Virus record (IMG/VR): IMGVR_UViG_3300028925_004769
Location: 1-26,977 of that record
Reading direction: 5' to 3' (one strand)
Origin: a virus
DNA: 26,977 bases
Both the position numbers and the translations under genes were made by a program. Positions 16,623-26,825 of this stretch are shown here, piece by piece (the stretch's first letter is position 1; each line of letters begins with the position of its first letter). Below the pieces are notes generated by a model that saw only the letters and a program-made list of their open reading frames with translations, was not told the origin of the DNA and ran no database searches.

Positions 16623-16663
16623 TGCACAAATAAAACAAAATATTTTATATATCCTACGAAACT
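16623..16663 (-). promoter_or_regulatory. Promoter-like site for the late operon (shared with 26628-26665)
   Basis: Reading the minus strand, AGTTTCGTAGG is followed by 18 bases and then TTTATTTGTGCA. The same arrangement (AGTTTGGTAGG, 15 bases, TTTATTTGCACA) precedes the replication operon. TTTATTTG differs by one base from the Bacteroidota -7 consensus TAnnTTTG, and a TTTG-like -33 box lies at a near-consensus distance in the right-hand copy; the left copy has TTTC there. The predicted transcript start would lie about 10 bases before the ATG at 16611. Not proven. Confidence 0.45.
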
Positions 16664-16800
16664 TTAAGAAATTTTATTAACTCTGCTTTATTCATATCTT
16701 TATCTTTCTCTTTATCTTGTTCTTTATCTTTAAGGGTAAAACATACCCTTATGATACCCTTTAAATACCCTTTAATTCTTTTCCATTTATATAATCCCAT
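16654..16800 (-). CDS. Possible 48-aa basic/KD-repeat leader ORF overlapping the repeat element
   Basis: An ATG at 16800-16798 opens a 48-codon frame: a basic start (MGLYKWKRIKGYLKG), then a Lys-Asp/Glu repeat KDKEQDKEKDKD and the ending MNKAELIKFLKVS. The DNA of this ORF contains the hairpin and the hexamer repeats described at 16696-16782, so it may be a nucleic-acid element that happens to be open. The right-hand copy encodes a much shorter version (MVFYTIKDKAKAKVKAKVKD at 26713-26781), sharing the T-[IL]-KDK register. That shared register is a point in favour of translation; the different lengths and lack of upstream homology are points against. Low confidence as a gene. Confidence 0.3.
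   Translation of the reverse strand: MGLYKWKRIKGYLKGIIRVCFTLKDKEQDKEKDKDMNKAELIKFLKVS
16696..16782 (-). repeat. Hairpin plus hexamer repeat element, copy 1
   Basis: On the minus strand, in order: AAAAGAATTAAA (16782-16771), three copies of AAGGGTA spaced 10-11 bases apart, the last of which forms a perfect 7-bp stem with TACCCTT (16750-16732, loop TGTTT), then six hexamers of the type AAAGAT (16731-16696). Any of the three AAGGGTA copies could pair with the single TACCCTT, so alternative hairpins are possible. There is no T-run after the stem, so it is not a normal terminator. A related element lies at 26716-26825. Confidence 0.6.
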
Positions 16801-17303
16801 TCCAAATTTTTTTATAATTTTTTTTTACTTCCAAAAACTGCTGAATATTCCATTTTATTTATTATAACTTTGTATTCCTTAGAATATACTGTTGCTCATA
16901 TCGCAACTAGCATATTTGATAACCTTCCCACTTAACAATATATATTATGTTTAAATTCAGAATAGGTAATGTCTATATACAACTGATCCCCTTTAAGATT
17001 ACTTGGAAGTTTTAATTCTAATGTATCTTTATGAAATTGGATTTAGATTTCTTGTGTTTGTGTGTATATGCTCAAGGAAGTGTATGTTGGAAATTGACGG
17101 AAAATTTTTAATCCCTTTTTTACTCCTTTAATCCTGTTTTTATCTTGAAAATCAACAAAATAAACACTTTTTTAACAAAATAATCATAAAAAAAGTAATT
17201 GTTAGTAAGTTTTGAAGAGAATTTGCTTGTAAAAGAAGAAAAAAAATTGCTTTATAACTAACAATCTTAAAAATATATTGCAACAATTAAAAATAATTAA
17301 GGT
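16801..17303. other. Non-coding AT-rich stretch upstream of the late operon
   Basis: I find no convincing gene on either strand; the longest minus-strand frames are under 25 codons. The minus strand has several T-rich tracts and two similar TTATTTTGTT sequences near 17160-17185 that might be promoter parts, but their spacing does not fit the Bacteroidota consensus. It lies between the terminator at 17304-17338 and the repeat element. Nothing else recognisable. Confidence 0.5.
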
Positions 17304-17338
17304 ATAAAAAAAGCTCACTTAATTAAAAGTAAGCTTTT
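17304..17338 (-). terminator. Intrinsic terminator of the accessory gene cluster
   Basis: The minus strand reads AAAAGCTTACTT, loop TTAATT, AAGTGAGCTTTT, followed by further T residues. The stem is 12 bp with one T-G wobble, ending in a run of seven T. It lies about 95 bases after the stop of the 79-aa gene at 17434 and separates the accessory cluster from the late-operon control region. Confidence 0.85.
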
Positions 17339-17433
17339 GTAGTTTGTTATTGCTTTAAGCTAACAGCTGAACAAAAATAGTAGGAAGATCAGAGCAATTA
17401 TATTGTTGCTAAATGGGATCTTGTCAAATTGAT

Positions 17434-19621: not shown

Positions 19622-19653
19622 TATTTATTATTTTATTATTTTATTATTTTATT
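19622..19653. repeat. Short AT repeat with period 8 (TTATTATT)
   Basis: The + strand runs TTATTATT-type octamers about four times around 19625-19655, covering the stop of the 125-aa gene and the start of the spacer to the next. On the minus strand it is AATAATAA repeated, with several TAA stops. Probably a slippage product in the leader of the 109-aa gene; no function seen. Confidence 0.4.
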
Positions 19654-20021
19654 ATTGTTATATCCGAATAAGATATTTTCTCTGTTGTTTTAGTCCCTAG
19701 TAAGTTGTAATCAACTAAAGTTATATACTTAGAACCGAATTTATTTATACTTAATCCGCTAGAGTAGAAATCTGTTTTTTCTCTTAATGTATAGTATTTT
19801 TTATCGTTATGTTTCATTAGGCAAATAGTATATATCCTATCTTCTAAGTAGTTATATTTTAAGTTTGTTAGTTTAATGTCTAGCTTATCGCTATCGTTTA
19901 CCAATAAACTTTTAATAATTTTTGCCGTAACTACTTGATTATCAGTAGTAGTTGTTGAAGTATTACTTGAGTTGATCTCTGTAACTTCTTGGTTTTCAGC
20001 GTTTTGTGTAAATAAATCCAT
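19644..20021 (-). CDS. Hypothetical protein, 125 aa, first gene of the accessory cluster
   Basis: The first 30 residues are low-complexity (Ser, Thr, Asn: NSSNTSTTTTDNQ) and probably disordered. From about 33 (VVTAKIIKSLLVNDSDKLDI) the sequence alternates as expected for a beta-rich domain: IYTICLMKHNDKKYYTL, FGSKYITLVDYNLL and ISYSDITIIK. No motif known to me. It opens the middle transcription unit after the long non-coding region, so its promoter should lie in 20022-20690, where I find no convincing match to the Bacteroidota -7 box. The stop overlaps the octamer repeat. Confidence 0.55.
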   Translation of the reverse strand: MDLFTQNAENQEVTEINSSNTSTTTTDNQVVTAKIIKSLLVNDSDKLDIKLTNLKYNYLEDRIYTICLMKHNDKKYYTLREKTDFYSSGLSINKFGSKYITLVDYNLLGTKTTEKISYSDITIIK

Positions 20022-20214
20022 TTTTGTTAGTTTTTTAATTAATATGGTGCAATATATACAAATAATTTACAATAAGATATTAAATTAATACAAATGTTTG
20101 TTCTTGTTTACTAGAGTAGAAAACACTTTTTTTAATTTTTTTTAAAAATAGCTTTTTTTTAATCTCTTTTCTTGCCTCTTTTTATTTGGTTGGTTGTGGT
20201 TTTGTGCTTTTTGT

Positions 20215-20246
20215 GGTTGGTTGGTTGGTTGGTTGGTTGGTTGGTT
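20215..20246. repeat. (GGTT)8 tandem tetranucleotide repeat
   Basis: Eight exact GGTT units on the + strand, preceded at 20188-20200 by further GGTT units broken by GTG. On the minus strand it reads (AACC)8. GG runs spaced by TT can fold as two-layer G-quadruplexes on the + strand. It is the most G-rich part of a very AT-rich non-coding region. Confidence 0.9.
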
Positions 20247-20573
20247 CTTTTTTTAAGTAATAGAACGCATGCACGTGATAACAATTTTTTTAATATAAAC
20301 AAGTAAAAAAGTAATTATTTTTTAATTTAGAATGATTCTAAATAATGAAGTAAAATTTAAAATAAAATTTATTTTCTAATGTCGAGAAACTGAACGAAAA
20401 AAAATCTTATATAAAAATATTCCACTTAAAAAAATCTTAATACATCAGGTTATCAACAAAAATTTTTGCACCTCCAAAAGTTGAAAAAAAAAATTTCACT
20501 TTTATAAAAAAAAATTATTGATTTGTAAAACTGATTTGCAAAAAATTTCTCATTTACACCACCTATATACCTA

Positions 20574-20629
20574 GCAGTTTCATGGCAGTTTCAGCAGACT
20601 CAGCAGTTTCAGCAGATTTGGCAGTTTCA
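20574..20629. repeat. Six 9-bp iteron-like direct repeats (GCAGTTTCA)
   Basis: Units starting at 20574, 20585, 20594, 20603, 20612 and 20621 read GCAGTTTCA four times exactly, with variants GCAGACTCA and GCAGATTTG in third... fifth positions (20594 and 20612), and a 2-base insert after the first unit. Period 9 over 56 bases, GC-rich against an AT-rich surround, and placed just after the terminator of the replication operon. Iteron-like binding sites or a recombination site are possible. Confidence 0.8.
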
Positions 20630-20679
20630 GGGAGAAATTAAAAAATAAAAATATTTTTAAAATAAAAAATAAAAAATAA

Positions 20680-20719
20680 AAAAATAAAAAAAAGCCAAGA
20701 AAAATTAATTCCTTGACTT
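20680..20719 (-). terminator. Intrinsic terminator of the replication operon
   Basis: The minus strand reads AAGTCAAGGAA, a short AT loop, then TTCTTGGCTT followed by T-rich sequence (TTTTTTATTTTTTTATT, 20691 leftward). The stem is about 10 bp with two G-T wobbles (20692-20719). It lies some 26 bases after the stop of the HTH gene at 20745 and would end the long leftward operon starting at 26595. Confidence 0.8.
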
Positions 20720-20744
20720 CTTCAAACTAAAACAAAACTAACAA

Positions 20745-20945
20745 CTAAATCTTTACATAGGTCTTGAACCTTAATATCTTATTGATTATAGATTGACTAA
20801 CTCTATAGGTTGATGCTAACTGATGCTGAGTAAACTCTCCTGTCTTGTAGTCAGCTCTAACCTTCTCTGCTTCTTCATAGGTAAACTTACGCTTTGCATA
20901 ACCTCCACCTCTCCTGTCCTTCCTGTCGTATATATTTACACTCAT
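20745..20945 (-). CDS. Small helix-turn-helix protein, 66 aa
   Basis: A basic start (YDRKDRRGGGYAKRKFTYEE) is followed by an HTH: EAEKVRADYKTGEFTQHQLA, STYRVSQSIINKILRFKTYV. The phrase TQHQLASTYRVSQSIINKIL is the helix-turn-recognition helix arrangement of the resolvase/Hin or homing endonuclease-associated HTH, in which a short protein recognises DNA. It overlaps the nuclease gene by 4 bases (ATGA) and is the last gene before the terminator. A DNA-binding regulator or a helper of the preceding nuclease is plausible. Confidence 0.65.
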   Translation of the reverse strand: MSVNIYDRKDRRGGGYAKRKFTYEEAEKVRADYKTGEFTQHQLASTYRVSQSIINKILRFKTYVKI

Positions 20946-21346
20946 ATCGTTTTATTAAAGTAGGCATCTATAACCTCTAATGATTGATCTAATCCTTTAG
21001 TAACCCTAGCACAATACCCTTGTTCGTTTAAGTATGCTATCCATTCTTTTTGTTCTTTGGTTGGGTAGGACTTCTTATCCTTTTTTATTTCAAGAAACAA
21101 TCCATGATACATTTCTCCTTTAAGGGTACCCCCCCCATCCCCCTTATCCCCCTCTACCCCCCTCTCCATAGGGAAACAGATTTGTAGGTCAGGGAAGCCT
21201 TTTACATAACCTGTAGCCTTAGCCTTCACAGCTTGTTTAAATGATGTCCTGATACCTCCTAAAGAAGCACAGTACATTACTTTAGGGTACTTAAGCTTTA
21301 GGTAAGTGATTACGCTTTTTTGTACTTCTTCTTCTTGATTTCTCAA
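20942..21346 (-). CDS. VRR-NUC domain nuclease, 134 aa
   Basis: Matches the VRR-NUC fold of PD-(D/E)XK nucleases: E5-E7 in a leading helix (NQEEEVQKSVITYLK), a basic middle section, GYVKGFPDLQ with D53, FLEIKK with E86 and K88, then Q99 in the helix TKEQKEWIAYLNEQGY and the ending ARVTKGLDQSLEVIDAYF. Phage VRR-NUC proteins are typically structure-specific or Holliday junction-type nucleases in replication modules. Between the D53 and E86 strands is an unusual Gly/Asp/Lys-rich insert (about residues 61-77) encoded by G-runs (see 21129-21162). It overlaps the upstream gene by 56 bases and the downstream HTH gene by 4. Confidence 0.85.
   Translation of the reverse strand: MRNQEEEVQKSVITYLKLKYPKVMYCASLGGIRTSFKQAVKAKATGYVKGFPDLQICFPMERGVEGDKGDGGGTLKGEMYHGLFLEIKKDKKSYPTKEQKEWIAYLNEQGYCARVTKGLDQSLEVIDAYFNKTI
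21129..21162 (-). other. G-quadruplex-forming motif inside the VRR-NUC gene
   Basis: On the minus (coding) strand the order is G6, TAGA, G5, ATAA, G5, AT, G8. Four runs of five or more G with loops of 2-4 bases is a very strong quadruplex motif, in an otherwise AT-rich genome. The G8 run is also a candidate for slippage and frame variation in this gene. Confidence 0.85.
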
Positions 21347-22904: not shown

Positions 22905-23483
22905 TTATTTTCTTAAACTATCTCCCTTCATAAAAACTACCTTGCACAATCTTCTTATTCTATCATATATTCTATCTCCGTACCTCTCCTTAATAGAACT
23001 CGCATCCAAATTAGATGTCAATAATAGTAATTTTAAATCATCTTCAGCCTCAAATATTGCATTTTCTACTGCATCTATCTTAGTCCCATAGTTATTTACA
23101 ATTTCTTCTGTGCCAATATCATCAATTACAATGAACGGAGTTTTGTATTCTGTAACTGTATGTAACTTCCTAGCAGGAATAGGCTTTAGTATCTTACCTA
23201 TCCTAGCATTGAATATCAATGGTATAACTCCTGTAAGTATTATAGACTTACCTCTACCACAGTTTCCTATCAAGAACAATCCCTTACCATCTGTATCTGA
23301 CAACCAATCTATAACATTATCATACTCAGGTAGATGCTCGTATTCTTTAATTGTTTTATCCACTAACATAAACGCTTCAATGAATAATGCTTTACATTCC
23401 TCCTTGCTACCAAAGGAATATCTTTTGTAATCCCTAATGTGAATGTGAGTTGCGTTCTTTAATGTTTCCTCTAGTGTTCTCAT
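22905..23483 (-). CDS. DnaC/IstB-like helicase loader ATPase, 192 aa
   Basis: An AAA+ type ATPase of the DnaC/IstB group: Walker A GNCGRGKS (residues 73-80), Walker B FIVIDD (117-122) followed by GTEE, sensor 1 LLLTSN (153-158) and an arginine-rich stretch RYGDRIYDRIRRLCK (167-181) typical of box VII with the Arg finger. It has a short N-terminal region of 60 residues, less than E. coli DnaC. It probably loads the replicative helicase (phage or host DnaB) at the origin. Located with the nuclease and SSB-like genes; overlaps the nuclease gene by 4 bases (ATGA). Confidence 0.85.
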   Translation of the reverse strand: MRTLEETLKNATHIHIRDYKRYSFGSKEECKALFIEAFMLVDKTIKEYEHLPEYDNVIDWLSDTDGKGLFLIGNCGRGKSIILTGVIPLIFNARIGKILKPIPARKLHTVTEYKTPFIVIDDIGTEEIVNNYGTKIDAVENAIFEAEDDLKLLLLTSNLDASSIKERYGDRIYDRIRRLCKVVFMKGDSLRK

Positions 23484-24085: not shown

Positions 24086-24709
24086 TTAAAATTTATTATA
24101 ATCTTTATTAGCTAATTGTTTTCTGCCTGACTTGTCTTTAATTGTATTTTTCTCCCAAGTCCTAACACAAGCTCTCCAATCCTTCATCTTTCCTTTACCT
24201 ATCATCCAACCTTTACTCGCATAGAAGTCTACAAAAGTATCAGCACAGACCTTGTTTTTTCTCTCATTGCAGTATTCATGTACTTCTTCTACTGTAGGTT
24301 CCTTAAATCGCTTTATAATAGGCTTCTTTATCTCGTTAGGAAGTCCTGCTACATCAACAGGGCTAATACCTTCAATGTTATATACATCATACTTGTCTAA
24401 TGCTTTTATAACTGACTGATGAACTCTTGAATTTTCATTTAGATTTACATATTGAAAGTCAATAAAGCTTGGAATAAACCATTTGTTTCCTCCATCAAAT
24501 ATCTTTATCTGACTAGCCATTACAGTAACAGCTTCAGCTTCAGTTATCTTACTTCCTATTCTTATTGATGCTACCTCAAAATCAGTTTCCCATATTCCTG
24601 CATGGGTACAATCATCTAATATGTATAGCCAAAACAGTTTATACTTAGGAACTAGTCCTCTTATGAAACCTTTCTTCCATTTGTCTGAGTCTGTCATTCT
24701 TTTTGCCAT
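24086..24709 (-). CDS. Putative replication initiation/replisome organiser protein, 207 aa
   Basis: The N-terminal part (residues about 1-110) looks like a winged-helix DNA-binding domain: KYKLFWLYILDDCTHAGIWE, TDFEVASIRIGSKITEAEAV and KWFIPSFIDFQYVNLNENSR. The C-terminal part from about 138 (PTVEEVHEYCNERKNKV..FVDFYASKGWMIGKGKMKDWRA, given in part) matches the motif of phage replication initiators and DnaD-like proteins ending in WRAxVRTWEKN. Those proteins bind the origin and recruit the helicase loader, whose gene lies two positions on. A hairpin at 24745-24767 separates it from the SSB-like gene. Confidence 0.65.
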   Translation of the reverse strand: MAKRMTDSDKWKKGFIRGLVPKYKLFWLYILDDCTHAGIWETDFEVASIRIGSKITEAEAVTVMASQIKIFDGGNKWFIPSFIDFQYVNLNENSRVHQSVIKALDKYDVYNIEGISPVDVAGLPNEIKKPIIKRFKEPTVEEVHEYCNERKNKVCADTFVDFYASKGWMIGKGKMKDWRACVRTWEKNTIKDKSGRKQLANKDYNKF

Positions 24710-25037: not shown

Positions 25038-25472
25038 TTATTTATTAATTAATTTACTCTTATACTGCTCTTTCTTTTCCAACAAATCATCAAGCTTTTT
25101 ATACAACTCATCAATCTTTCTCTCTATGTTTACTATCTCGTGTATATAGTAATTATCATCCTCTATAAGCATAGCTTCAATTTCTTCAAAGTTTAACCTA
25201 TAAGATTTTAATATTTTTATAAAGTTGTTGTGTTGATTTACATTATGAAGTATTGTAGCATGATTCTTGTTAAGTATCTTTGCTATTAGAGTATATGTAA
25301 TTCCAAATGTATTTCTTAATATTCCACAATACATTCTCCTAGCATCTACTACAAGTCTTACTCTACTCTTAGACTCTATACTAATCCAACTTACATCATA
25401 CCTTCTGCATATCTCAGATTTGATTTTATCATCTCTTTCTTTAGTAAGTTCAAATGAATAATTACGCTTCAT
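25038..25472 (-). CDS. Free-standing DnaA domain IV-like DNA-binding protein with coiled-coil end, 144 aa
   Basis: Residues about 20-87 fit the C-terminal DNA-binding domain of DnaA: KSRVRLVVDARRMYCGIL (with the R-rich helix), FGITYTLIAKILNKNHATIL and HNVNQ. The (D/N)H-x-T-x-x-H signature is visible as NHATILH at 70-76. DnaA uses this part to bind 9-mer DnaA boxes at oriC. There is no AAA+ ATPase domain, so this protein alone cannot load helicase; residues 107-141 form a coiled coil (IERKIDELYKKLDDLLEKKE), perhaps for dimerising. It may bind the phage origin or compete for host boxes. It overlaps the XRE-type gene by 11 bases. Confidence 0.75.
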   Translation of the reverse strand: MKRNYSFELTKERDDKIKSEICRRYDVSWISIESKSRVRLVVDARRMYCGILRNTFGITYTLIAKILNKNHATILHNVNQHNNFIKILKSYRLNFEEIEAMLIEDDNYYIHEIVNIERKIDELYKKLDDLLEKKEQYKSKLINK

Positions 25473-26665: not shown

Positions 26666-26712
26666 ATTTACAATGTTTCTTTAAAATAATATTAGAAAAG
26701 TTGATATTTAAC

Positions 26713-26825
26713 CTAGTCTTTATCTTTAACCTTAGCTTTAACTTTAGCTTTAGCTTTATCTTTAATGGTATAGAACACCATTAGTTAAGGGTTTATAAAG
26801 GGCTTGTAAAGGGTTTAATTCTTTT
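26713..26825 (-). repeat. Hairpin plus hexamer repeat element, copy 2
   Basis: On the minus strand: AAAAGAATTAAA (26825-26814), three CCCTT-type units about 10 bases apart, a hairpin AATGGTG, TTCTA, TACCATT (26782-26764), then eight hexamers of the AAAGNT type (26763-26716) and a TAG stop for the 22-codon frame MVFYTIKDKAKAKVKAKVKD. The stem matches copy 1 in place and size but not in sequence. The upstream gene stop at 26824 overlaps the element start. Confidence 0.6.

What the first reader, a model, noticed from the sequence alone, without database searches (positions are those of the whole stretch)
20574..20629. Six 9-bp iteron-like repeats in a long non-coding region
Seen: period-9 GCAGTTTCA-type units in AT-rich DNA, next to A/T runs and the replication operon. 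Known: iterons of this type often mark initiator binding at origins, and initiator-like and DnaA-like genes are close by. They also read as a 19-codon + strand frame, probably by chance.
Basis: partly seen in the sequence, partly recalled or inferred. Interest (0 to 1): 0.52.

Follow-up and report, generated by a model that had tools for sequence, protein, structure and literature searches.

The report
Phage binding-site array beside replication genes
A run of short repeated DNA words beside a marine phage's replication genes is conserved across a large group of uncultured phages together with one small DNA-binding protein, so it is a real control site, perhaps the start point of DNA copying, although that role is not proven.

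Summary
The repeat is real. Window 20574-20629 holds four exact GCAGTTTCA and two degenerate copies; no shuffle gave four. Read on the coding (-) strand the unit is TGAAACTGC. It is not private to this contig. Of 80 relatives found only by the neighbouring nuclease protein, 49 carry at least two exact copies at the same place, 12 are too short to tell, 4 carry 1-mismatch variants and 15 have none. A DNA-only search led back to the same place in 88 of 113 new loci. The array tracks a 66-aa arm-plus-helix-turn-helix protein (HTH66, 20745-20945). Three lineages with altered repeats have private changes at near-invariant HTH66 residues, a pattern not seen in the 207-aa initiator-like protein. So the best-supported binder is HTH66, not the 207-aa or DnaA-like protein. 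Origin function is plausible (AT-rich flank, helicase loader, initiator-like gene, SPP1-like layout) but unproven. GC skew is uninformative. A Bacteroidota-type promoter lies downstream in 69 of 85 relatives (not in the window), so an operator role is a close rival. Some relatives also carry many single copies in genes, on one strand, unexplained. A new variant of a known kind, moderately interesting.

The parts
20574..20629 (-). array of six 9-bp units (TGAAACTGC on the - strand = GCAGTTTCA on +); four exact, two degenerate (TGAGTCTGC, CAAATCTGC)
20630..20692 (.). A+T-rich stretch (94%) flanking the array; possible unwinding element
   Evidence: lowest-GC 120-bp window of the contig lies here
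20688..20723 (-). terminator-like hairpin with T tail ending the replication operon
20745..20945 (-). HTH66: 66-aa protein, basic RKDxRGGGYxKRKF arm plus three-helix HTH; best-supported binder of the array
20942..21346 (-). 134-aa VRR-NUC-type nuclease / Holliday-junction-resolvase-like protein; its ORF overlaps the HTH66 ORF by 4 bp
22905..23483 (-). DnaC/DnaI-like helicase loader
24086..24709 (-). 207-aa initiator-like (replisome-organizer-like) protein
25038..25472 (-). 144-aa protein with DnaA domain IV (Bac_DnaA_C)
20326..20342 (.). palindrome TTTAGAATGATTCTAAA, which in the genomes examined occurs only 86-287 bp downstream of the array
19644..20021 (-). first ORF downstream of the array (125 aa, no family); found in very close relatives only

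Best explanation
The repeats are an iteron-type array: several same-way-round copies of a 9-bp site read by the small phage protein HTH66, which binds as a monomer through a basic arm and a helix-turn-helix (inferred). The array sits at the end of the replication operon beside A+T-rich DNA. Its most likely job is as the phage's origin or replication-control site, where bound HTH66 forms a nucleoprotein block that helps the 207-aa initiator-like protein and the DnaC-like loader open DNA and load helicase, much as gp38 does at SPP1 origins. Shown here: the array, its conservation, its location, and its linkage to HTH66. Inferred: binding, and the replication role. My confidence is about 0.75 for 'HTH66 recognises the array' and 0.45 for the full statement including the origin role.
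For: Conservation: 49 of 80 protein-retrieved relatives have >=2 exact copies at the same place (12 too short); 88 of 113 new loci retrieved by the DNA pattern lie just after HTH66/nuclease genes; reversed-pattern control 0 of 50 records. Linkage to HTH66: of 31 genomes scanned, 23 of 24 with HTH66 have an array (the exception G028 has degenerate copies); of 7 without it, 6 have none, and the seventh (G033) is cut 498 bp upstream of its array. Variant lineages: TGAAATTGC x5 (L038), TGAAACTGT x3-4 (L055/L056), degenerate (L126), with A44G, Y47C and S50D, each the only deviation among 87 distinct HTH66; near-invariant deviations in variant lineages 4 of 10 for HTH66 against 2 of 40 for the 207-aa protein and 2 of 16 for the nuclease. 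Origin role: the same 6 genomes also lack the 207-aa protein; the lowest-GC window of the genome lies within -400..+500 bp of the array in 12 of 22 genomes; helicase loader and DnaA-domain gene in the operon.
Against: No binding or replication data. Raw detrended GC skew has its maximum (not minimum) at the array in 15 of 21 genomes, while four-fold sites put the minimum 4-22% downstream in most; the two disagree. In 10 of 22 genomes the lowest-GC window is elsewhere. A promoter motif follows the array in 69 of 85 relatives. Extra arrays lie upstream of HTH66 itself (L057, L058) and of the first early-operon gene (G017), which looks like transcriptional control. The HTH66 fold matches are weak (best E 0.24). 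The 207-aa protein co-occurs equally well with the array.
Confidence: 0.45

Rival explanations
1. Operator array for a transcription switch: HTH66, last gene of the early operon, binds the array to activate or repress the next operon (and in some phages its own gene or the early operon).
For: A Bacteroidota-type -7 element (TAnnTTTG) lies between array and next ATG in 69 of 85 relatives, 15.1 expected, 47 with a -33 element too, mostly 20-60 bp before the ATG (consensus recalled). Copies sit 21-57 bp upstream of the HTH66 start codon in L057/L058, and a second array begins its last copy 15 bp before the first early-operon gene in G017. HTH66 shows weak likeness to transcriptional regulators.
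Against: The -7 element lies mostly 100-200 bp from the array with variable distance, and the array sometimes lies inside the 3' end of the nuclease gene; the window itself has no TAnnTTTG in this gap; sites upstream of HTH66 occur in 5 of 115 distinct upstream regions, 3 of these single sites apparently inside the preceding gene.
Confidence: 0.33
2. Packaging, recombination or concatemer-resolution site: HTH66 guides the adjacent VRR-NUC nuclease to the array.
For: The HTH66 and nuclease ORFs overlap by 4 bp in the window and the genes stay adjacent or close in relatives; HTH66 resembles the DNA-binding end of HNH homing endonucleases; HJ-resolvase likeness of the nuclease.
Against: The nuclease is kept in all 6 genomes without HTH66 or array; two relatives close into circles by end overlap away from the array (G010, G045); terL lies about 3-6 kb away.
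Confidence: 0.1
3. The binder is the 207-aa initiator-like protein, not HTH66 (a variant of the best explanation, so it overlaps with it).
For: It is present in all 25 genomes that have an array or HTH66 and absent from all 6 others; initiators of this kind bind direct repeats in SPP1 (PMC6316719 passages).
Against: Private changes in variant-site lineages are not enriched in it (2 of 40); Pan5 has a homologue but no site.
Confidence: 0.2
4. Chance or low-complexity artefact.
For: A+T-rich, repeat-laden gap; bacterial genomes do contain tandem TGAAACTGC by duplication (19 of 112 pattern hits outside long ORFs, 93 inside).
Against: 0 of 2000 shuffles; cross-family conservation with changing spacers.
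Confidence: 0.01

Closest known systems
SPP1 oriL/oriR with gp38 (Bacillus phage)
   Same: direct repeats plus A+T-rich stretch, one of them in a long intergenic region, in a phage with a replisome-organizer-type initiator, helicase loader and Holliday-junction resolvase (PMC6316719, passages read)
   Different: different repeat; evidence here points to a 66-aa arm-HTH protein rather than the initiator; origin activity untested; no named phage with HTH66 found apart from homing-endonuclease likeness
Iteron origins of plasmids and phage satellites (for example PLE RepA_N)
   Same: tandem direct repeats at an initiator-coding replicon (PMC7145576, passages read)
   Different: no RepA_N or Rep protein found among the window proteins scanned; sites are non-palindromic 9-mers with 0-3 or 8-9 bp spacers
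CENP-B / Brinker-type arm plus HTH DNA-binding domains; C-terminal HTH of phage HNH homing endonucleases
   Same: predicted three-helix HTH with basic N-terminal arm
   Different: free-standing 66-aa phage protein; similarity weak (E 0.24 structural, 3e-3 sequence)

Membership tests
Iteron-type replication origin | tandem direct repeats near an initiator gene | tested here: met
Iteron-type replication origin | adjacent A+T-rich unwinding region | tested here: met
   12 of 22 genomes have their lowest-GC window by the array
Iteron-type replication origin | repeats conserved in relatives with the same replication genes | tested here: met
Iteron-type replication origin | skew change at the site | tested here: inconclusive
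   raw and four-fold skew disagree
Iteron-type replication origin | initiator binds the repeats | not testable with these tools
   only indirect linkage, and to HTH66
Iteron-type replication origin | DNA synthesis starts there | not testable with these tools
   no replication data
DnaA-box origin | exact TTATCCACA-type boxes by the array | tested here: not met
   TTATCCACA within 900 bp downstream of 0 of 112 arrays; the window has TTATCAACA at 20450, a pattern (TTATCNACA) found 4 times in the window
Phage operator array | promoter next to the sites | tested here: inconclusive
   69 of 85 relatives yes, the window no
Chi/KOPS-type dispersed oriented motif | over-represented on one strand through the genome | tested here: inconclusive
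   yes in a sub-lineage, no in the window; other 9-mers reach similar scores

The most novel reading that the evidence does not exclude
That would be a phage-encoded analogue of KOPS, Chi or uptake-type motifs, steering replication restart, nuclease action or packaging.
Probability: 0.18. Interest if true: 0.8.

Novelty: new variant of a known kind. Interest (0 to 1): 0.52.

Why it matters
It names a likely cis-element and its probable binder for a large group of uncultured marine phages of probable Flavobacteriia (host inferred), a group for which I found no described origin in the papers searched. It gives a simple testable pair (66-aa protein, 9-bp site), and it exposes an unexplained spread of the same site through genes in one sub-lineage.

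Tried and rejected
GC skew as an origin test: in the ten relatives first examined, genes are almost wholly co-directional and cumulative skew is monotonic; detrended and four-fold results disagree. Host Chi motif: 91 copies in a 4.2-Mb Maribacter genome, both strands, not Chi-like. Structured RNA or tRNA: none in the window. Bacterial genomes with triple sites: 93 of 112 inside long ORFs, 19 not, no neighbouring nuclease or 207-aa homologue, one marginal HTH66 hit (E 0.0021). Downstream palindromes as host dif sites or host operators: XerD-arm-like palindrome in 0 of 31 genomes of one host family; TTTAGAATNATTCTAAA in 3 of 31, once each; dropped. Other lineages with a replacement array: none found in gaps of 6 array-less genomes.

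Full report
WHAT IS THERE. Window 20574-20629 holds six 9-bp units, four exact GCAGTTTCA and two degenerate. On the - strand, the strand of the surrounding genes, the unit is TGAAACTGC. The array is 2 bp out of phase after the first unit. It lies in a 723-bp gap without ORFs of 50 aa or more, between a 125-aa ORF and the 66-aa HTH66. A terminator-like hairpin (20688-20723) and a 94% A+T stretch (20630-20692) separate it from HTH66. The contig is a 26,977-bp virus record classed linear, probably a fragment. Its terminase is nearest to Croceibacter phage P2559Y (43%). The upstream operon codes for a VRR-NUC nuclease, a DnaC-like loader, a 207-aa initiator-like protein and a stand-alone DnaA domain IV.

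IS IT CONSERVED. I fetched 80 loci by homology to the nuclease alone (the best 80 of 104). Of these, 49 have >=2 exact TGAAACTGC within 1.2 kb after the nuclease/HTH66 genes, 12 end too soon, 4 have HTH66 and 1-mismatch variants, and 15 have no HTH66 in the locus and no copy even with one mismatch. Of the 113, 88 lie right after HTH66 or the nuclease; of the other 25, 17 are in ORFs and 8 are not (several near a stretch end or in a short coding repeat). Among 112 distinct arrays the start-to-start steps are mainly 11 (92), 12 (38), 18 (37), 9 (31) and 17 (29), with 2-7 copies, mostly 3 or 4; the 9-mer stays fixed while spacers change. The reversed pattern was found in 0 of 50 records; the true pattern in 36 of 50.

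WHO READS IT. In 31 genomes (30 relatives fetched as whole contigs and the window), HTH66 is found in 24. Of these, 23 have an array (including G032 and G046, where it starts inside the 3' end of the nuclease ORF); the other, G028, has degenerate copies (TGAGTTTGC, TGAGTCTGC, TGAAATTGC). Of the 7 without HTH66, 6 have no array; G033 has one but its contig ends 498 bp upstream. The 207-aa protein tracks equally well (present in 25, absent in the same 6). The DnaA-domain protein does not: it is present in 4 of the 6 and missed in G013, G016, G028 and G032. To separate HTH66 from the 207-aa protein I looked at lineages with changed sites. Of 150 loci with HTH66 and enough downstream DNA (a set that includes pattern-selected loci and several loci from one contig), 141 have >=2 exact copies. 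Three lineages have changed sites and each carries the only deviation at an otherwise invariant HTH66 residue (A44G, Y47C, S50D; 86 of 87 distinct proteins agree at each). L053, too short downstream to be in that set, shares S50D and has mixed sites. L017/L096 have changed sites without such a change, and L229 has its array in an ORF instead. Near-invariant deviations falling in variant lineages: HTH66 4 of 10 (two of the four are one lineage), 207-aa protein 2 of 40, nuclease 2 of 16, DnaA-domain protein 0 of 5 with only two variant lineages represented. This is three events, so it is suggestive, not proof. HTH66 is predicted as a low-confidence basic arm plus three helices (mean pLDDT 79); structural matches to CENP-B and Brinker domains are of the right kind but weak (E 0.24 and above).

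WHAT IT DOES. For an origin: the operon, the A+T-rich flank (12 of 22 genomes have their lowest-GC 120-bp window within -400..+500 bp), the association with the 207-aa type of initiator, and the likeness to SPP1 oriR/oriL (PMC6316719 passages). Against or neutral: skew. For an operator: a TAnnTTTG promoter element between array and next ATG in 69 of 85 relatives against 15.1 expected, 47 with a -33 element (the consensus is recalled, and the window lacks it); copies directly upstream of HTH66 in L057/L058 and of the early operon in G017. The two roles are not exclusive. I put origin at 0.45 and operator at 0.33.

AN UNEXPLAINED RESULT. In some relatives single TGAAACTGC copies are spread through genes on the coding strand. 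Genomes with HTH66: 76 seen against 8.5 (codon-order shuffle) or 13.8 (synonymous shuffle); without: 4 against 2.1, 3 of the 4 in G033, which has an array (tandem copies counted once; at least two of the 76, in G032 and G046, are first copies of arrays overlapping the nuclease gene). Counting every copy, frame 2 has 82 against 10.3 and frame 1 has 12 against 0.11; frame 0 would be a stop. The 87 coding sites fall in 27 gene families. On the other strand 12 were seen against 4.0, on the coding strand 84 against 7.9. Only 2 of 79 lie in the first fifth of the genome after the array. Cautions: relatives are not independent; unrelated 9-mers reach similar scores in other genomes (GAGGGGTTA in G018, TTGCGGGTG in G026); the window itself has none on the coding strand, and genomes such as G002, G004, G007, G010 and G011 have 1-3. 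TGAAACTGC ranks 2 among 9-mers seen three or more times in G045, G042 and G043.

NOVELTY. The library search for the 9-mer with 'phage' gave no paper. tblastn of HTH66 in 50,697 phage records gave only matches in seven Bacillus phages, most annotated as homing endonucleases. Papers seen: passages of PMC6316719 and PMC7145576; others only as search listings.

Noticed in passing
window 20326-20342; relatives 86-287 bp downstream of the array: Palindrome TTTAGAATNATTCTAAA; the looser form TTTAGAAYNATTMTAAA occurs in 7 of 22 genomes and only in this gap. Other relatives carry different palindromes there (CTATGCGTGCATAG, AACATAATA..TATTATGTT, TGACAAATTGTC).
   Followed up: partly
relatives G045, G042, G043, G047, G048, G031, G035, G039: Single TGAAACTGC copies enriched in coding genes on the coding strand.
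   Followed up: partly
L163 (1491), L202 (462), L205 (1368), G035 (4590): A short gene has three to five abutting TGAAACTGC copies in frame, coding an (ETA)n-like stretch, about 8-9 kb upstream of the noncoding array.
   Followed up: partly
window 16639-17433: Second long noncoding gap upstream of the terminase genes, with TATCTT and ATACCCTTTAA repeats; a gap of similar size lies about 1.5-3 kb after the array in most of the ten relatives first fetched.
   Followed up: no
window 20214-20246: Eight-copy TGGT tetranucleotide run inside the same intergenic gap.
   Followed up: no
window 26707-26817: Period 6/12/18 CTTTAG-type repeats in the gap before the start of the replication operon.
   Followed up: no
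G016 and G017 contig ends: Both contigs begin and end in or near the array with two slightly different alleles, so the circular genome probably broke there in assembly; the region looks polymorphic in the population.
   Followed up: partly
L057, L058: HTH66-nuclease gene pair flanked on both sides by TGAAACTGC copies; the downstream array lies before the terminator there.
   Followed up: partly
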